Virus record (IMG/VR): IMGVR_UViG_3300028829_003508 | Span: 1-23,172 of that record | Source of the DNA: a virus | Strand: one strand, 5' to 3' | Length of the DNA stretch: 23,172 bases | Shown: one piece after another, positions 380 through 20,664 of the stretch | Numbering within the stretch: position 1 is the stretch's first letter | Layout of the letters: each line of letters begins with the position of its first letter | Position numbers and translations under genes: made by a program | The notes under the pieces: model-generated | Seen by the model: only the letters and a program-made list of their open reading frames with translations | Told to the model about the DNA's origin: nothing | Databases searched by the model: none

Positions 380-3300
380 CTAGTTAAGGCAATCCTTTAG
401 CAGTCGTTCATGCTTCTGTCTTATTATGTTGAGATCCTTCTTAGCCTCGTCATAAGACTTCTTAACCTCGGGTAAGTTTTCCCCAATTGTGTATGAGACA
501 CCAAGCTCGGCACTTGGAACCGCCTCACTTTCTATAGGCGACTGATTCAGGATTACAGGGCTATCGGATTGCTCAGGGTTAAAGGCTGCGTTAATGGATC
601 TTCCGTTTAATACCAATACGCTCTCGCCATGCTCATCAGGCATTCCAACAGCGTCATAATTAAGCGCACGAGCTATAACCCCTTTTATTCCTTGCCAATC
701 CCAATCCGCCTCTCCAGCATACTCACCGCCGTCTAGCTGATGTCCTGTTATTTCCTCGTATCGATCAACCCCCATGTCTGGAGGATTTTGATATTCCTTA
801 TTATGATAAGAGTATTCTGTATCTATAGCAAATTTATTCCCTGAGGCATATTCAAGAAGTTCATTTGCTTCATCATCTGTTATATCTTTACCGAATCGTT
901 CTCTTATCTTTTCTATCGCTTTTTTGTTTCCGTCATCATCATATAAAGCTTCATGGATAAAACCATCATGGGTCACACTATTCTTTACTACAAGCTCTTG
1001 AATCGTGCCGCCATGAGATTCCGCAACTTCCCTATCATAACTACCAAAAATGCCACCAAAAAGATTGCTATGATTTTTGCCTTGGGAGTCTACAGTTTTC
1101 CCATAAGGTAGAATTTCTTGTGATGGGGTTCCATCAGTTCCAGCGTATATAATATTGTCAACATCAAACCCCTGCTCCTTAGCTCTAGCCATTTTCGAGG
1201 CGGTGTCCATAGGAAGATCGGTGGACTGCTGGAGGACAACCCCAGTGTCGCTGTCCCAAGACCCATCGTTATAGATAGACTTGACCTGACCCTTGTTAAA
1301 GGCTAAATAATGCTTCGTCTCTGAGTTAACGCCAACCATTGGCTCTCTCCTTGATGAGTCTTCGCCCCATTTCTTGGATACGGTTGAGTCTATAATTCCA
1401 TCAAACCCCATCTCTTCTAGGGTCGCTCGAAGCAGTTCATTGATGCCTGATCGTGGGACATATGGGTCCTCCACATACATAGACGAGTTTGAGTTTGTCG
1501 CATAGTTCTTAATCTCCTCAAAGGTTAGTCCGCCACTATCCTCTGCCAGCTCGATTAATCCTTGGGCAAAGTCGTCGTAATTGAAGTTAGGCATATCATA
1601 CCCAACGGTCTCGATGGCTTCTAGGAACTCTACGATAGACCCACTTTGCTCAGGGTAGTCATACGCAGCTTCTGTGGCACGTTCAATAATTTCTTCTTCA
1701 GTGCCACCCTCACGCCTCGACCAATCCATTTGGTCTTCAACGTCATAAGTCGTTACAAAGTCAAAGACCGTTGGATTATCTCCCCCTATTTCGACAGGGT
1801 TTTGAATCGACATATACACTGGCATTACATTTGGCTGGTTGACGGTGATCTCTTCCTGAGCAATCACTAATGCATCGTCATACTCTATGCCTTGCTCATC
1901 CTCGATCTCCTCAGCCCTAATTGCAATCCTGTTCTGTAAGTCCCCGCCCTCAATGCTTGCGTAATTTACAGAGGCGTCCTCTGGGTTGTTTGTCGCGTGC
2001 TGCGCTACCCCTTGATCGCTGTCAGGCATAGACAGCAGCCGACCATCACTCCCTAACTCCGATACGTCGTTGGTTGTTCCAAAATATAATTGCAGTGGCT
2101 CAATCCTCCCAGTCTCGTCAACAAAAGAAGCCTTAGAGTTACCGAACCATTCCTTAAAACGTTGGTTCCTATCAACCCTAGCGTCTTCCTGTCTCAAGAC
2201 ATTGAGTAGCGAGTCTAACTGCTCAGAAACATCTTCCCCAGCCTCTTGCCTAGTGATTAGATCAACAAGCTCTGGGTTATCAATCTGCTTAATCTTAGCG
2301 ACCAGTTTATCCCTCTTGACTAATTCCTTGTCTATAGCCTCAACAAGCTCCTCAGCCGTGCTTAGAGCCTCTGTGGGGTCGATGCCGTAGCTACGCAATA
2401 CATCCCATGCCTCATGGTTCTCGTCGCTTATAACGGCTTGTGCTTGGTCTACGTCAATCCCCTCGAGGATTCTACGCGACTCATTAATTACCTGACCTGA
2501 CTCTATGACAGTGGCTATATCCTCAGTCGTTACGACGTCCTTCTCTACGACACTATTCATCTCATCCGCTGTTTCAACACGGAAGCCCATCTTCTTATAC
2601 GCATCCTCGACCGTTATTTCCTTCCCTGCTTTCCGCGCTCGGTTCACGTACTGAACGATATACGAGGGGAATAGTGCAGCGGCGTGTCTAGCTTCAGACT
2701 TGGTGTAGACACCAGCCTTTTCGGCTTGCTCCTGAACAGACTCCCATACCGTGTCTGCCTCAGATTTTAATTGACCCTCCTTTGTTACCATCTGCTTTAA
2801 AGTGCCAATCATGCTCGACTGCCCAACATTTATCTCGCTGTCAAGTAGATGAGTCTGATCAACCTTTATGTGGGGTCGTATCGCCTCAGTCAGGTCTTTA
2901 TTAGTTGCTACCTTAGAAAGAAAGTCCTCCATAGAAATAGACACCGCCCCACTCTCATCTTGGGCGAACAGTCCATTAAGCTCCTCATGCTGTAGGGCTA
3001 TCTCCTCCTCGATGTAGACCCTTTCACCGTTGGTTATGGTCTTAATGAAAGCGGCGTAGTCGCCTTGGGATCTCTGGTTAACAAGAGAGTCTTGGGCTAG
3101 AATAATACCCTCATCTAGTCTTCTCTGTCCGGCAAATGACGAGGCTATCTCAGCCTGTTTCTTCTGTGCAGAAATACCGACGGCGTCTAGCTTATTAGTA
3201 ACGCCCTCCGCTATGGCACTAGGTGCAGACATACCACCACCCATCATAAAGCCGATAACTGCTGCGTCACGTACCCGCTTGAAAAACTCGTCTGGAGGGA

Positions 3301-4498
3301 GATCGTCGTTAAGTACCTCTAGGTCATACAATATATTGGCAAGCTCTGTCACCACCTCTGACGCGGATTCTGTGAATCCTACCTTAAGCACTTTCTCAGC
3401 GATACCCATACCCTTCTTGAATACCATCCCAACAGGTATAGCCTCTGGACCAATCTCAAAGATTGTTCTCCAAAGCATGTCTTTCTGTGACTCGGCAACA
3501 TTCCGTTTAGTCTTGAAGGGTTTTTCAATGCCTCTGTGATTGTAAGTATCATCCTTCTCCGTTCTCGCTTCAGCGTAAAACGTCGGAGCCACCATCGAAG
3601 CCATAGCCGCCAACCCGCCTACCAGACCTAAAGGCGAAGCCGTGACCCCTAGCGTTACAAGCATGTTAGGGATTGAAAGTATCAGATTACTTGTAAAATA
3701 CTTTAGTGTGGCGTCTTCGGTATAAGGCATGTCCGCCTGAACCCTTGCCGCTGACTCTGCATATTTCTTGGCTGCCACATCCGCGTCGGCTTGAGCCACA
3801 GCCTTGGATTGCTCCATCTCCTCGGCTGGGATGTTATCAGCCATACGCTGTCGAGCCATCTCGGGAGTTAACCGCTGCCCAGTTTCCTCTATCCTACTGC
3901 TAGGTTCCTCAGCAAGCCTCTCAGCGGTCTTGGCGGCTGCATCCCATGCGTTAACCTCCGCCTCATTAATTGCCTGACTAGCCCCTGCCGGAACTTGCTT
4001 TGCCATGATCTCGCCAAAGGCACTGCTAAACTGATTCTTAAATATAGTAGACCAATCGGCTTCAGCTCTGTCAAACAGTAAGTGCGTGTTCTTTAGATTG
4101 TATAGATCATCGTGAGATATCGCTGCGTTATTCGGATCGCTTAGGAAGGTGGCAAGTTCTGGATGCTTCTCAGTAAGCTCACTTATATTCATCCCATTAA
4201 TCTTGTCTTGCTGCTCAACCCGACCCTTGTTCCTCATTACTACATCTGTAGGCAGATTTAATCGCTTGCCTAACTCTAAAGACCTAGCGTGATTATCTGG
4301 GTCTTGAGACACACCCATAAGTAGGGATTTATTTAGAAGCTCCTGCTGGGTTCTTCTGATGCTCGCCTCTGAGTCATAACCACTCTCGTCAGTTAAAAGC
4401 TCCTGCTGAGTCCTTCTAATAGTCTCCTCATAATCACCACGAGTGTTAGTTAGAACCTCGTCTATAGTACTTTCGTAGTTTGGGTTTATTTCGCTCAT
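380..4498 (-). CDS. Large internal virion (ejection) protein with two tandem ART-PolyVal-like domains
   Basis: This 1372-aa protein sits where T7 has gp16, the large internal core protein that is ejected into the host. Residues 1-260 are charged and helical, with IRRTQQELL repeated at 27-35 and 47-55. A hydrophobic stretch at 268-305 could enter a membrane. Residues 338-430 (TESASEVVTELANIL) resemble a segment common in phage internal proteins. From 779 a domain opens with RFKEWFGNSK and a YFGT motif at 805-808, and ends near 1090 (FNKGQVKSIYNDGS). This is the layout of the ADP-ribosyltransferase domain of phage polyvalent proteins. A second copy runs from about 1104 to 1320 (RAKEQGFD, YAGT at 1118-1121, NYDAVGMPDEHG). 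Both lack the His of the family's YHGT motif, so activity is doubtful. I see no lytic transglycosylase motif like that at the T7 gp16 N-terminus. The virion role is inferred from position. Confidence 0.85.
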   Translation of the reverse strand: MSEINPNYESTIDEVLTNTRGDYEETIRRTQQELLTDESGYDSEASIRRTQQELLNKSLLMGVSQDPDNHARSLELGKRLNLPTDVVMRNKGRVEQQDKINGMNISELTEKHPELATFLSDPNNAAISHDDLYNLKNTHLLFDRAEADWSTIFKNQFSSAFGEIMAKQVPAGASQAINEAEVNAWDAAAKTAERLAEEPSSRIEETGQRLTPEMARQRMADNIPAEEMEQSKAVAQADADVAAKKYAESAARVQADMPYTEDATLKYFTSNLILSIPNMLVTLGVTASPLGLVGGLAAMASMVAPTFYAEARTEKDDTYNHRGIEKPFKTKRNVAESQKDMLWRTIFEIGPEAIPVGMVFKKGMGIAEKVLKVGFTESASEVVTELANILYDLEVLNDDLPPDEFFKRVRDAAVIGFMMGGGMSAPSAIAEGVTNKLDAVGISAQKKQAEIASSFAGQRRLDEGIILAQDSLVNQRSQGDYAAFIKTITNGERVYIEEEIALQHEELNGLFAQDESGAVSISMEDFLSKVATNKDLTEAIRPHIKVDQTHLLDSEINVGQSSMIGTLKQMVTKEGQLKSEADTVWESVQEQAEKAGVYTKSEARHAAALFPSYIVQYVNRARKAGKEITVEDAYKKMGFRVETADEMNSVVEKDVVTTEDIATVIESGQVINESRRILEGIDVDQAQAVISDENHEAWDVLRSYGIDPTEALSTAEELVEAIDKELVKRDKLVAKIKQIDNPELVDLITRQEAGEDVSEQLDSLLNVLRQEDARVDRNQRFKEWFGNSKASFVDETGRIEPLQLYFGTTNDVSELGSDGRLLSMPDSDQGVAQHATNNPEDASVNYASIEGGDLQNRIAIRAEEIEDEQGIEYDDALVIAQEEITVNQPNVMPVYMSIQNPVEIGGDNPTVFDFVTTYDVEDQMDWSRREGGTEEEIIERATEAAYDYPEQSGSIVEFLEAIETVGYDMPNFNYDDFAQGLIELAEDSGGLTFEEIKNYATNSNSSMYVEDPYVPRSGINELLRATLEEMGFDGIIDSTVSKKWGEDSSRREPMVGVNSETKHYLAFNKGQVKSIYNDGSWDSDTGVVLQQSTDLPMDTASKMARAKEQGFDVDNIIYAGTDGTPSQEILPYGKTVDSQGKNHSNLFGGIFGSYDREVAESHGGTIQELVVKNSVTHDGFIHEALYDDDGNKKAIEKIRERFGKDITDDEANELLEYASGNKFAIDTEYSYHNKEYQNPPDMGVDRYEEITGHQLDGGEYAGEADWDWQGIKGVIARALNYDAVGMPDEHGESVLVLNGRSINAAFNPEQSDSPVILNQSPIESEAVPSAELGVSYTIGENLPEVKKSYDEAKKDLNIIRQKHERLLKDCLN

Positions 4499-4501
4499 TA
4501 A

Positions 4502-6265
4502 TTATTCCGTCCCAAGAAGTCTGTCTAATTCTTCCCCTACATCCAAAATTGTCGAATTGGGATTGCGTTCCCACCACTGAATCAGCGCAGCCCTTGCCGT
4601 ATTTGCTCCATGGGACGTCCAGTATTCTTTCTCTATTCTCTTGTCTACCTCGACGCCAAATACGCTTTCAACCCTGTTCTCCATGACTTGTTCGTAGCTA
4701 GGGGCGTCATCCTTCCTCCCGTTCCATAGATTATTATCCGCATCTAATAGTAGCGGATCGAGATGCGTATAAAGCCATTGGCTGTCAGGGAGTTGATTGT
4801 TATTATCCGCCTTATACTTTATGACTAGTTTGTCCATATGGGACTTGATTTGATTCTTGGTATCGTTAGCCAGTCCTGTGAGACTGTTAAGCATCTGCTG
4901 CTCGAAGGTGTAAAGCCCCTCGTCCTTCTTATCCCCAGTACGCGCAGCTTCCAACCTATTAAATAAGGTCTTGTGTGAGGCGTTAGTTAATGAAGCACGA
5001 TTAAGAGCATTTCCAGCCTGCTCATGGTCACCATTATTGATAAGTCTGGCAACAGCCTTATAGTGTTCAATATTGTCTTCCTTGATGTTAGGCTTCAAAA
5101 GCTTAACCATTCCCTCTGCACCCAACCTTTTTTGTAGGGCTAAAGGAAGCTCCGCAGGAGACGCGTACTTAGGTGCGCGTAATACTGTTACTTCGTGAGG
5201 CTCCATAGTGTCGGCTTCAGCAGCCTCTCTCTGCGGGTTCAATAAGTCAACAGCCTCTATTATCGCTGAGTTATAGTCTTGAGCCTTGACCGTAGCAATG
5301 AGGCTATTTGCCTGAATTGCTTTCGCCATCAAGAGCGCTCGTAGTTCTGGGTCTTTAGTATTAGCGACGGTATCCAGCATTGTATCCATATCCGCCCCGT
5401 TTTCAATCCACGCATCCTGTTGACCGTTTGCCTGATTCGTCCTGCCGTCAATAGCGTTCTGCTCCCGCATATCATTGAGTAGCTTAGGGTCAACCCATTG
5501 CTTATACCTCTCAATCAAATCAGCCTGTAGAACGGGCTTTCCATCAAGAAGGTTTAACTTCGTCATGATGATGTTAGAGGTGGTTTTCCTTGCCGTCTTC
5601 TCCGCCTGAACCTCTGATATATAGCCATGCTCCAACGCAATGTCTATCCGCTCTTGGGCTGAGTCTATAGCCGTCACCACCCCATCCTTCTCAACCAGTG
5701 CTGGGATCGCTAGGCTTAAGTGATTATTTAGATCCGCTACCGCCGTGTCTGCCTTAGCCTTGTTAGCGACGTTCCTCATCACACCTAACCCCTTAAACAT
5801 GGTTAGTGTTGACTCTGAGGTGAACGCCTTTCTTAGCTTATCGTTATTGATTTTTCTGCCGAACTGGTCGGATAGTTTATTTAAAGCAGTCCCGTACCGT
5901 TCCTCAATCGTTTCATGGTCTTTGTCGTCATTGAAGCTGTGATTAAGTTCAGCAACCGCAACATTGTAATCATTGATAGTGGTGTCGTAGTTGTACTTAT
6001 CGTCATCAAGCTGTTCCTGTTTCTTGACGGTTTGATAGTTCCCTACAGCGGATTGAACCTTTGATATCTGGTCAACCACCGTGCTATAGATGTCGGCGCT
6101 GTAATCCTTTGTAGGGGCTGGGGTCTTCAGTGCGATGGCAGCCTTCCCTGCTGGGCCTCTGACTGCGCTTAGATTGCCGTGGGCAACAGTTCCAGAGTTA
6201 CCACCAATACCAGTGCCTGATCCTGATTTCCTTGCTATGCTTCTATTGTCTGGGAGTTGTGGCAT
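4502..6265 (-). CDS. Internal virion protein (T7 gp15-position)
   Basis: This 587-aa soluble, mostly helical protein lies between the gp14-like gene and the 1372-aa gene, the place of internal core protein gp15 in T7 (747 aa, so this one is shorter). The first 50 residues are rich in Gly, Ala and Ser. A long charged, probably coiled-coil region follows (QTVKKQEQLDDDKYNYDTT, then EERYGTALNKLSDQFG near residue 125). I see no enzymatic motif, signal peptide or membrane segment. Its ATG overlaps the stop of the upstream gene as TAATG, and its own stop is three bases before the next ATG, so translational coupling is likely. Proteins of this kind form the core above the portal and are ejected with the DNA. 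I assign that role from gene order, not from clear sequence homology. Confidence 0.75.
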   Translation of the reverse strand: MPQLPDNRSIARKSGSGTGIGGNSGTVAHGNLSAVRGPAGKAAIALKTPAPTKDYSADIYSTVVDQISKVQSAVGNYQTVKKQEQLDDDKYNYDTTINDYNVAVAELNHSFNDDKDHETIEERYGTALNKLSDQFGRKINNDKLRKAFTSESTLTMFKGLGVMRNVANKAKADTAVADLNNHLSLAIPALVEKDGVVTAIDSAQERIDIALEHGYISEVQAEKTARKTTSNIIMTKLNLLDGKPVLQADLIERYKQWVDPKLLNDMREQNAIDGRTNQANGQQDAWIENGADMDTMLDTVANTKDPELRALLMAKAIQANSLIATVKAQDYNSAIIEAVDLLNPQREAAEADTMEPHEVTVLRAPKYASPAELPLALQKRLGAEGMVKLLKPNIKEDNIEHYKAVARLINNGDHEQAGNALNRASLTNASHKTLFNRLEAARTGDKKDEGLYTFEQQMLNSLTGLANDTKNQIKSHMDKLVIKYKADNNNQLPDSQWLYTHLDPLLLDADNNLWNGRKDDAPSYEQVMENRVESVFGVEVDKRIEKEYWTSHGANTARAALIQWWERNPNSTILDVGEELDRLLGTE

Positions 6266-7167
6266 TATCCGAACCTCGGTGATCGACTATAGGTAGTCGA
6301 CGGTCTATTTGATCTCGTCGTGGAGTTTACAACCGTTCTGGCAGCCCACCTGTCTGGTCCTGCAAATCCGCCTCTCCCACCACCCATACTAGCAGCCTTC
6401 GCGCCAGCGGTGCTTGGGGCTCTGCCAGCATATCCAGCAGCCGAGTTAATCCCGATAGATAAGAGATCACCCGTGAATGCCGTTTGAGCCTGACGACGTG
6501 CAGCCGTCTTAGCAGCCGCAATGTTATCTAGATTTGCTTGGTCATCCATCTCATGCTGCTGCCTTGCCATGTTATCTGCGTATCTAGAGTATTTATCCTC
6601 GTAGTCAGAGATCGCGTTTTGAAATTCCCCCTCAGCCATCTCAACACCCGCTTGGTATCCCGCATCAATCTGAGCCACGTCACCGTCATACCGCGCTAAA
6701 CGTGCCTTATATTTTAATGTGCGTGCAGAGTCCTTACCCTCCCATAACCTTGAGAGTGCATTGTACTCAGCCGTGGCGTCTATCTCTGCTAGGATCTCAT
6801 TAATATCCTCAGACGTTCCACCTGAAAACATAACACCAGTGGTGGCGTCAGAGGCTAAGATCCTTCCCTCACGATAAGCCTCAATAGCGTCTGGGTGGCT
6901 TAATGCTAGAGCCTTGAGAGCGTCGTCCTTATACCCCTTGGCGATCTCATCCGCTCTCTCATGCTCCATATCCCCAATCTGTCTAATGCGTTCAGCTCGT
7001 TCCTCATATCCTGAGTATCGAGGAGCTGCACGGAACTGTGAGACATAAGGCCTTGAGACGTAGTCAGACCCAATCTGATTGGCTTGCTTCTGAGCAGCTC
7101 TCTTCTTACCATAAGCCCCAAGCACCGAGCCACCAATCATTAACCCTGTGGTTATTGGGTCACCCAT
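6265..7167 (-). CDS. Internal virion protein (T7 gp14-like)
   Basis: This 300-aa protein starts with a short hydrophobic glycine-rich segment (TTGLMIGGSVLGAYG), then KKRAAQKQAN and a long helical middle. Its C-terminal tail is rich in Gly, Arg, Ser and Thr (PSTAGAKAASMGGGRGGFAG). A weakly hydrophobic N-terminus followed by Ala/Gln-rich helices is typical of the small internal virion proteins that, like T7 gp14, are ejected and placed in the outer membrane. It is longer than T7 gp14 (196 aa). The ATG at 7167 lies inside the end of the gp13-like gene (16-base overlap), which fits tight coupling. The assignment rests on gene order between gp13-like and gp15-position genes plus composition, so homology is probable rather than shown. 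Confidence 0.75.
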   Translation of the reverse strand: MGDPITTGLMIGGSVLGAYGKKRAAQKQANQIGSDYVSRPYVSQFRAAPRYSGYEERAERIRQIGDMEHERADEIAKGYKDDALKALALSHPDAIEAYREGRILASDATTGVMFSGGTSEDINEILAEIDATAEYNALSRLWEGKDSARTLKYKARLARYDGDVAQIDAGYQAGVEMAEGEFQNAISDYEDKYSRYADNMARQQHEMDDQANLDNIAAAKTAARRQAQTAFTGDLLSIGINSAAGYAGRAPSTAGAKAASMGGGRGGFAGPDRWAARTVVNSTTRSNRPSTTYSRSPRFG

Positions 7168-7514
7168 TGATATAACCTCCCATCTTTAGTTGTTTCTACA
7201 TACTCGAACCCTGTGTGCTTTAGGTAAGACTCAGAGGTCGGGTACTTTGTGGAGGCTATTGCGAAGACTGGCCCACGATAGCTCTCGATGATTTTCTTAA
7301 AAGCTCTTGTCGCTTTCATGACAGTAACTGGGTATTTCTTAGGGTCAATGACGCACTCACTGAATGCCTGTAACGGCTTAGTGTGAAGCACCCCTCCGAT
7401 CATTACGGGCTCCCCGTCCTCAAGAACAGTAATGCCACGAACAGATTCCTGAAAGGGCTCTCCATTCACGGCAATAACGTCCTCGTACTCCAATGGTCTA
7501 AATGTCGCTGTCAT
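7152..7514 (-). CDS. T7 gp13-like internal/assembly protein, GNAT-like
   Basis: This 120-aa protein has the size and order of T7 gp13. The C-terminal half is the best match: a helix with FKKIIESYRG, then a strand, then SESYLKHTGFEYVETTKDGRLYQW, which parallels SHIRFLKTIGAVFHEEYTRDGQF in T7 gp13 (recalled from knowledge). The pattern beta-helix-'F(L/K)(K)xxGF' is that of an acetyltransferase (GNAT) fold. The glycine-rich acetyl-CoA loop (Q/RxxGxG/A) is not evident, so I expect a non-catalytic scaffold. T7 gp13 is needed to build the internal core. The gene overlaps the tail tubular B gene by ATGA and overlaps the gp14-like gene by 16 bases. Confidence 0.75.
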   Translation of the reverse strand: MTATFRPLEYEDVIAVNGEPFQESVRGITVLEDGEPVMIGGVLHTKPLQAFSECVIDPKKYPVTVMKATRAFKKIIESYRGPVFAIASTKYPTSESYLKHTGFEYVETTKDGRLYQWVTQ

Positions 7515-19936: not shown

Positions 19937-20188
19937 ATGATTAAGGTGACAACAACAACATTATACAGAAACGGCGATACGCGAGAGCAGACAATCGCAA
20001 ACTCAAGCGGCGACTCAGTCGCAAAGGTTTATTTCCACATGAATAACAGGAGTGAATATTCTATCGAAGTATACCCAAGCGTTACCGATTGGATAGATAG
20101 CAAAACTGCAATAGCGCTCTCTAGTGATCTGTTACTGATAGTGAAGCACTGCGACGCTATAGCGCTATCACAGAAGGTGAAGGCGTAA
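19937..20188 (+). CDS. Unknown early protein, 83 aa, paralogue A
   Basis: It starts MIKVTTTTLYRNGDTREQTI, a two-strand beta pattern with central SEYSIEV and TDWID motifs, ending in a helix (SSDLLLIVKHCDAIALSQK). Residues 1-76 are 63% identical (48 of 76, no gaps) to the protein at 20398. The family is not recognised. Stop and next start share TAATG. The leader AAGGAAGCG is a good ribosome site. Confidence 0.75.
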   Translation: MIKVTTTTLYRNGDTREQTIANSSGDSVAKVYFHMNNRSEYSIEVYPSVTDWIDSKTAIALSSDLLLIVKHCDAIALSQKVKA

Positions 20189-20397: not shown

Positions 20398-20664
20398 ATG
20401 GTAACAGTGACAAAAACAACCTTGTATAAAAATGGCGACATCAGCCAATTGGCCTTCGCAAACGCAATCGCCGATCCGATCGCGATAGTTTATTTCGATA
20501 TAAATGACAGGAGTGAATACAGTATCGAGGTAGCCCGAGGTGTTACTGATTGGATCGATGGCTCAACGGCACTGGCACTATCTGAAGATCTATTACGGAT
20601 AGTGAAGCACTGCGATTTCATCGCGGAAAAAATAACCGAAGAGCTGCGTACACCAGTATTTTAG
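20398..20664 (+). CDS. Unknown early protein, 88 aa, paralogue B
   Basis: It starts MVTVTKTTLYKNGDISQLAF and shares the TLYxNGD, RSEYSIEV, VTDWID and LLxIVKHCD motifs with the gene at 19937. It is longer at the C-terminus (ITEELRTPVF). The leader AACGAGAGAAACGAAAATG matches the cluster style. Conserved motifs between two diverged copies suggest that the family is under selection. Function is unknown. Confidence 0.75.
   Translation: MVTVTKTTLYKNGDISQLAFANAIADPIAIVYFDINDRSEYSIEVARGVTDWIDGSTALALSEDLLRIVKHCDFIAEKITEELRTPVF

What the first reader, a model, noticed from the sequence alone, without database searches (positions are those of the whole stretch)
539..2152. Tandem ART-PolyVal-like domains in a phage internal virion protein, both without the usual catalytic histidine
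Seen: the 1372-aa protein has two copies of the ADP-ribosyltransferase layout of phage polyvalent proteins, at about residues 783-1090 and 1104-1320. The first opens with RFKEWFGNSK and the second with ARAKEQGFD, both typical lead-ins. Known: these domains use a His in a YHGT motif (H-Y-E type). Here the motif reads YFGT and YAGT. Inference: these could be catalytically dead copies kept for binding NAD, host proteins or each other, or they use another residue. Ejected with DNA, they could act as injected effectors.
Basis: partly seen in the sequence, partly recalled or inferred. Interest (0 to 1): 0.72.

Follow-up and report, generated by a model that had tools for sequence, protein, structure and literature searches.

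The report
His-less ADP-ribosyltransferase pair in ejection protein
The last big protein that this short-tailed phage probably injects with its DNA ends in two different ADP-ribosyltransferase-type domains that both lack the usual active-site histidine; the second is a relative of the CRISPR inhibitor AcrIF11, looks like an acquired cassette, and belongs to a small virus lineage that has kept alanine at that site, so phages may carry altered anti-defence domains inside the particle.

Summary
The 1372-aa gene (380-4498, minus) is intact. F806 (YFGT) and A1119 (YAGT) sit where relatives have His.

The domains are not two copies of one family. Domain 1 (about 778-1086) is ART-PolyVal (PF18760); it has also lost the strand-2 Tyr (now H834), reading F-H-Y-D against the published H-Y-D site. 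Domain 2 (about 1115-1300) belongs to the AcrIF11 anti-CRISPR family (NF052490 above cut-off; PDB 6kyf by sequence and by fold). It keeps AcrIF11's Phe, second His and Asp/Glu but not the first His.

Of 54 AcrIF11-like domains collected, 49 have His, 4 Ala and 1 Ser. The four Ala domains form one supported clade, all encoded in virion modules, and share two further fixed changes, so Ala looks kept rather than decayed. The domain-2 core is a sharp low-GC3 island, also seen in two other large polyvalent genes with His-less domains: it behaves like an acquired cassette.

Gene order (300, 587, 1372 aa after the tail genes) matches T7 gp14-gp15-gp16, so injection is likely but inferred. Best reading: an injected effector with one dead ART domain and one remodelled AcrIF11-type domain. 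Catalysis is untested.

The parts
380..4498 (-). gene of the 1372-aa LPD22 / ART / AcrIF11-like protein, predicted ejection (internal virion) protein in the T7 gp16 position
   Evidence: intact ORF; LPD22; gene order
4082..4321 (-). LPD22, residues 60-139
   Evidence: PF18834, 59.6 bits against cut-off 28.6
1241..2167 (-). domain 1: ART-PolyVal, residues about 778-1086, reading F806-H834-Y846-D1033 against H-Y-Y-D in relatives
   Evidence: PF18760 34.0 bits alone; alignment of 31 relatives; AlphaFold2 pLDDT 88.9; Foldseek not significant
2075..2086 (-). YFGT motif of domain 1, F806 at 2081-2083 (His in relatives)
1997..1999 (-). H834 at the strand-2 Tyr position of domain 1
1154..1204 (-). lead-in TASKMARAKEQGFDVDN (residues 1099-1115), shared with ordinary ART-PolyVal domains of L086 and L087
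599..1156 (-). domain 2 core: AcrIF11-like domain, residues about 1115-1300
   Evidence: NF052490; 6kyf by phmmer, by profile E 6e-30 and by Foldseek E 1.9e-9; AlphaFold2 pLDDT 80.0
1136..1147 (-). YAGT motif of domain 2, A1119 at 1142-1144 (His in AcrIF11)
632..637 (-). D1288-E1289 of DEHG, the position of the catalytic Asp of AcrIF11 (D115/E116)
629..1168 (-). low-GC3 island, residues 1111-1290, GC3 0.256
551..604 (-). tail flank GRSINAAFNPEQSDSPVI (residues 1299-1316), resembling the tails of ART-PolyVal domains
4502..6265 (-). 587-aa gene in the T7 gp15 position
   Evidence: position and size only; no family match
6265..7167 (-). 300-aa gene in the T7 gp14 position
   Evidence: position and size only

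Best explanation
Shown: the C-terminal part of a gp16-position, LPD22-headed protein carries two different ART-family domains. Domain 1 is a degenerate ART-PolyVal domain (F-H-Y-D). Domain 2 is an AcrIF11-family domain of a rare clade with Ala at the strand-1 position but with the Phe, second His and Asp/Glu of AcrIF11; its core is compositionally foreign and sits between ART-PolyVal-type flanks. Inferred: the protein is packed in the head and enters the cell with the DNA, so the domains act before any phage gene is expressed. Domain 1 is non-catalytic and serves as scaffold or target-binding module. Domain 2 still binds NAD+ or a related ligand in a remodelled pocket (A1119, with the clade-fixed Q1167 and G1270) and modifies or blocks a host defence or takeover target; Cas8 of type I-F CRISPR is the obvious candidate by ancestry, but the target is unknown.
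For: Families. Fold of domain 2: (6kyf E 1.9e-9, TM 0.71 by target length; the rmsd of 4.8 A is loose). Residue survey. Clade of WIN, L100, L101, L102 at 99/95 with the motif columns left out. All four lie in virion modules: L084/L100 between portal and MuF, L102 between portal and scaffold/major head genes, L101 in a 2583-aa protein with InPase and LPD23 beside a structural gene, and the window. Island: GC3 0.256 for residues 1111-1290 against a minimum of 0.41 in equal windows of other virion genes; the lowest-GC3 segment of the whole gene also falls on the domain in L101, L104 and L130. Precedent: chain B of the Anabaena phage A-4L pre-ejectosome (9k3a) is gp27, which has an LYHGT ART-like motif, and it is the second Foldseek hit of domain 2. 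ARTs in injected phage proteins are established in general (PMC5512222). The AcrIF11 H20A/Y46A and D115A mutants are inactive (PMC12421852), so the Asp that domain 2 keeps is the one known to matter.
Against: In related enzymes, loss of the strand-1 His costs most of the activity (at least 70-fold in diphtheria toxin; PMC7955679), so domain 2 may simply be inactive. Conservation of DEHG is partly built in, because the scan selected on it; only, whose pattern lacked DEHG, recovers L084 and L101 independently. The clade has four members. Packaging and injection rest on gene order. The target is unknown, and nothing shows that the host has type I-F CRISPR. No model with NAD was made and no coordinates were inspected.
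Confidence: 0.42

Rival explanations
1. Both domains are pseudo-ARTs: injected with the DNA, they no longer use NAD+ and act by binding (host proteins, ADP-ribose, or each other), as PARP13 and TASOR do in animals.
For: Both lack the His that holds the adenosine ribose and the nicotinamide amide of NAD (role stated in PMC7955679). The double mutant H20A/Y46A of AcrIF11 is inactive (PMC12421852). PARP13 (Y-Y-V) and TASOR are inactive ART folds. Domain 1 has lost the Tyr too.
Against: Domain 2 keeps Phe, second His and Asp/Glu over long divergence, whereas PARP13 lost the acidic residue as well. Two co-fixed changes (Q1167, G1270) suggest rebuilding of the site.
Confidence: 0.35
2. The ART domains are passengers: the protein serves DNA ejection only, and both domains are decaying leftovers of former effectors.
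For: Gp16-type proteins are mosaic and vary in size and domains (PMC8954989). Domain 1 is the only member of its set with F and H at the two sites.
Against: The ORF is intact with normal codon usage in domain 1. Ala in domain 2 is fixed in a clade, not random. A foreign island indicates acquisition rather than long residence and decay.
Confidence: 0.12
3. An ordinary AcrIF11-type anti-CRISPR enzyme for which the strand-1 His is dispensable; the protein ADP-ribosylates Cas8f on entry.
For: Scores above the NCBIfam equivalog cut-off; DEHG, Phe and second His kept; Asp/Glu is the site whose mutation kills AcrIF11.
Against: 49 of 54 relatives keep His. The alpha-helical part thought to recognise the Csy complex is poorly conserved across the family (PMC12421852) and is longer here. 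No host or CRISPR type is known.
Confidence: 0.08
4. The domain assignment is wrong and there is no ART fold.
For: Foldseek finds no significant solved relative of domain 1 (best 6kyf, E 0.1, probability 0.51), and PF18760 scores below cut-off in the full-length protein.
Against: PF18760 at 34.0 bits when scanned alone, roughly 25-39% identity over the whole domain to ART-PolyVal relatives, confident AlphaFold2 model; domain 2 is secure.
Confidence: 0.03

Closest known systems
AcrIF11 (PDB 6kyf, 8dwq; NCBIfam NF052490), ADP-ribosyltransferase anti-CRISPR of type I-F
   Same: Domain 2: family score above cut-off, best fold match, Phe-His-Asp/Glu pocket residues and DEHG motif
   Different: Strand-1 His is Ala; the aromatic residue at position 1167 is Gln; Arg/Lys at 1270 is Gly; longer insertions; fused into a large virion-module protein instead of a small separate gene; no CRISPR activity shown
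ART-PolyVal (PF18760) of phage polyvalent proteins (Tox-ART-HYD2 clade, H-Y-D)
   Same: Domain 1: profile match, WFGNSK lead-in, GFDGI Asp, tail motif; LPD22 plus ART-PolyVal in one protein also occurs in Limnohabitans phage DC33, L011 and L047
   Different: His to Phe and strand-2 Tyr to His, a combination seen in no relative collected
T7 gp16-type ejection protein and the A-4L gp27 pre-ejectosome protein (PDB 9k3a_B)
   Same: Gene order and sizes of the three-gene block; gp27 also carries an ART-like motif (LYHGT)
   Different: No sequence similarity detected to gp16; A-4L gp27 keeps the His
PARP13 / TASOR, inactive ART-fold proteins of animals
   Same: ART fold without the strand-1 His
   Different: They also lost the acidic residue; domain 2 has not

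Membership tests
ART-PolyVal (PF18760), domain 1 | profile score above the curated cut-off | tested here: met
   34.0 bits against 31.2 for the isolated region; 27.8 in the whole protein
ART-PolyVal (PF18760), domain 1 | His in strand 1 | tested here: not met
   F806
ART-PolyVal (PF18760), domain 1 | Tyr in strand 2 | tested here: not met
   H834
ART-PolyVal (PF18760), domain 1 | Asp in strand 5 | tested here: met
   D1033, conserved in 31 of 31; identity with the published Asp is by alignment, not by structure
ART-PolyVal (PF18760), domain 2 | profile score above the curated cut-off | tested here: not met
   no match for residues 1084-1372 even at E 10
AcrIF11 family (NF052490), domain 2 | profile score above the curated cut-off | tested here: met
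   50.6 and 55.5 bits against 50
AcrIF11 family (NF052490), domain 2 | ART fold of AcrIF11 | tested here: met
   Foldseek 6kyf E 1.9e-9, probability 1.00, on a model of mean pLDDT 80.0
AcrIF11 family (NF052490), domain 2 | first His of H-F-H-D | tested here: not met
   A1119; His in 49 of 54
AcrIF11 family (NF052490), domain 2 | Phe, second His and Asp of H-F-H-D | tested here: met
   F1151, H1162, D1288; which His is meant is inferred from spacing
AcrIF11 family (NF052490), domain 2 | ADP-ribosylates Cas8f and inhibits type I-F CRISPR | not testable with these tools
   needs an experiment
Phage polyvalent protein | large multidomain protein with LPD and effector domains | tested here: met
   LPD22, ART-PolyVal, AcrIF11-like
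Phage polyvalent protein | packed in the virion and injected | not testable with these tools
   gene order only
T7 gp16-type ejection protein | largest gene at the end of the three-gene ejection block after the tail genes | tested here: met
   300, 587, 1372 aa after tail genes; T7 196, 747, 1318 aa (PMC8954989)
T7 gp16-type ejection protein | sequence homology to gp16 | tested here: not met
   no Pfam or PHROG match to gp16 families in the whole-protein scans; so filed by position only

The most novel reading that the evidence does not exclude
A clade of AcrIF11-type domains has exchanged the ART histidine for alanine, moves between phages as a low-GC cassette, and is built into ejected virion proteins, so that the particle itself delivers an anti-CRISPR or related anti-defence activity with an unusual NAD site before any phage gene is expressed.
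Probability: 0.2. Interest if true: 0.85.

Novelty: new variant of a known kind. Interest (0 to 1): 0.6.

Why it matters
If domain 2 still works, it shows an ART site without its strand-1 His and gives a natural example for the open question of what AcrIF11-type domains need for catalysis and for target choice. It also links a known anti-CRISPR enzyme family to virion-borne polyvalent proteins; no paper in the searched open-access library holds both 'AcrIF11' and 'polyvalent'. Delivery with the DNA would remove the usual delay of anti-CRISPRs, which must first be made. If both domains are dead, the case is a clean example of injected pseudo-ARTs.

Tried and rejected
Whole-protein scan of IMG/VR found no relative. 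Relatives found through the tail genes (L006, L007, L009) are near-identical phages but their contigs do not contain this gene, so no dN/dS could be computed and the residues could not be confirmed in a second contig. MAFFT of domain 1 against domain 2 alone gave no meaningful register. A PDB profile search for domain 1 found nothing, and Foldseek was not significant for it. One genome scan with the narrow YAGT set found nothing. A pattern scan for YxGTxG....E[I/V]xPYG, blind to the strand-1 residue and to DEHG, found only L084 and L101, both Ala. Considered and rejected: two copies of one domain (different families); a sequencing slip (at least two base changes per site, and Ala recurs in three other contigs); the H-Y-E site type for the ART-PolyVal domain.

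Full report
1. The observation. The ORF at 380-4498 (minus) encodes 1372 aa and is intact. YFGT is at 805-808 and YAGT at 1118-1121; the codons at the strand-1 position are TTT (F806) and GCT (A1119). The window is an IMG/VR record of 23,172 bases with no larger genome behind it.

2. What the two domains are. Domain 1 matches ART-PolyVal PF18760, 34.0 bits alone against a cut-off of 31.2, but 27.8 in the whole protein. Its relatives in IMG/VR are roughly 25-39% identical. Domain 2 does not match PF18760. It matches NF052490, AcrIF11 family, 50.6 bits in the whole protein and 55.5 alone, cut-off 50, and PDB 6kyf, AcrIF11, E 1.2e-8 by single sequence and 6e-30 by profile. An AlphaFold2 model of domain 2 (pLDDT 80.0, pTM 0.76) has 6kyf as its best solved match (E 1.9e-9, probability 1.00, TM 0.71 by target length). 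Domain 1 folds confidently (pLDDT 88.9), but Foldseek finds nothing significant; the best hit is again 6kyf, E 0.1. Its assignment therefore rests on the Pfam profile and the alignment.

3. The active sites. Domain 1 reads F806, H834, Y846, D1033; among 31 aligned domains His is present in 30 at the first site and the window alone has Phe; a motif survey gives 72 of 73 His after correcting three HGST misreads. One scan pattern allowed only His or Phe there, the other was blind to it, so these counts are partly conditioned. AcrIF11 is described as H-F-H-D, and its H20A/Y46A and D115A mutants are inactive (PMC12421852). Domain 2 reads A1119, F1151, H1162, D1288-E1289.

4. A His-less clade. Scans collected AcrIF11-like loci from viruses and genomes (phages and plasmids). 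In 54 distinct domains the first site is His in 49, Ala in 4 (window, L100 which is the same record as L084, L101, L102) and Ser in 1 (L104). The scan selected on DEHG, so conservation of Asp/Glu there is partly built in; Phe (54 of 54) and the second His (50 of 54) were not selected on. With the motif columns removed the four Ala domains form a clade at 99/95, and L104 falls elsewhere. The branches inside the clade add up to about 4 substitutions per column, so an unchanged Ala is more than inertia. Two more positions are fixed in the clade and different outside it: Q1167 (H, Y or F elsewhere) and G1270 (R, K or once Y elsewhere). A pattern blind to both the first residue and DEHG recovered only L101 and L084, both with Ala and DEHGES (sequences).

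5. Where they are encoded. In L084 the domain is a 295-aa gene between portal and MuF genes; in L102 a 233-aa ORF between portal and scaffold/major head genes; in L101 a 2583-aa ORF with InPase and LPD23 after a structural gene. L104 is a 2747-aa protein with LPD1, LPD5 and LPD38. Small stand-alone AcrIF11-like genes all have FHG or YHG. Other fused relatives keep YHG or FHG, and L124 and L130 carry ART-PolyVal beside the AcrIF11-like domain, so the pairing recurs.

6. A cassette. Third-position GC is 0.49-0.51 in the rest of the gene and 0.46-0.55 in seven other virion genes, but 0.256 in residues 1111-1290; the lowest equal window elsewhere is 0.41, and the likelihood gain of 19.7 compares with at most 10.9 in 200 permutations. 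The island coincides with the AcrIF11-like core, while the flanks (MARAKEQGFDVD, and RSINAAFNPEQSDSP) resemble those that enclose ordinary YHGT ART-PolyVal domains in L086 and L087 and an AcrIF11-like core in L147. In L101, L104 and L130 the lowest-GC3 segment of the gene also falls on the AcrIF11-like domain; in L124 and L117 it does not. Permutations treat codons as independent, so the significance is approximate. The simplest reading is that the core was grafted into a resident ART-PolyVal frame.

7. The protein. After terminase, portal, scaffold, capsid and tail genes come genes of 120, 300, 587 and 1372 aa. T7 gp14, gp15, gp16 have 196, 747, 1318 aa in the same order, and part of gp16 is placed in the host cytoplasm (PMC8954989). 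The 1372-aa protein begins with LPD22 and shares its N-terminal region with Pseudomonas phage UFJF_PfDIW6 gp16, which follows genes annotated as internal virion proteins, and with DC33, L011 and L047, which have LPD22 plus ART-PolyVal with His. No sequence match to gp16 was found, so packaging and injection are inferred. Anabaena phage A-4L gp27, solved as chain B of a pre-ejectosome (9k3a), is the second Foldseek hit of domain 2 and carries LYHGT, a structural precedent for an ART-like domain in such a protein.

8. Mechanism and verdict. Shown: two different ART-type domains, the His losses, the clade, the island, the gene order. Inferred: injection, ligand, target. I favour a non-catalytic domain 1 and a remodelled, ligand-binding and possibly catalytic domain 2 that acts on a host target at entry (0.42). 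The main rival is that both are binding-only pseudo-ARTs (0.35), given that the His matters at least 70-fold in diphtheria toxin (PMC7955679). By the membership tests, domain 1 fails two defining residues of an active ART-PolyVal and domain 2 fails one of AcrIF11, so neither is filed as an active member; domain 2 is filed as a new variant.

Noticed in passing
L161 8519-12001 (Desulfobulbus elongatus): AcrIF11-like domain with His in one 1161-aa protein with ArdC-N, MPTase-PolyVal and Toprim domains, apparently an anti-restriction and anti-CRISPR combination of a mobile element.
   Followed up: partly
L094, L095 and one search hits: AcrIF11-like genes (FHGT/FHGS) annotated as hypothetical on many conjugative enterobacterial plasmids, in L094 next to parM (247 plasmid records matched, 238 of them conjugative).
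   Followed up: no
L167 20116-25269 (Anabaena phage A-4L gp27): The 1717-aa 'tail protein' present in the pre-ejectosome structure 9k3a has an ART-like LYHGT...GTYFS motif that no Pfam or NCBIfam model finds.
   Followed up: partly
L004 (PQ492659.1, Limnohabitans phage DC33): The record is classed as Inoviridae although it is 39 kb and carries a very large (about 3100-aa) LPD22/ART-PolyVal gene; the taxonomy line looks wrong.
   Followed up: no
window 19937-20188 and 20398-20664 (+): Two similar small ORFs (83 and 88 aa) side by side, a tandem duplication of unknown function.
   Followed up: no
window 7152-7514 (-): 120-aa gene between the tail genes and the ejection block, weakly like phrog_308, annotated as internal virion protein (E 0.0012).
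   Followed up: no
L090 (Pasteurella phage Pmp11): Divergent AcrIF11-like domain in a reading frame annotated only as misc_feature, with YRHAT at the strand-1 place and DENG for DEHG.
   Followed up: no
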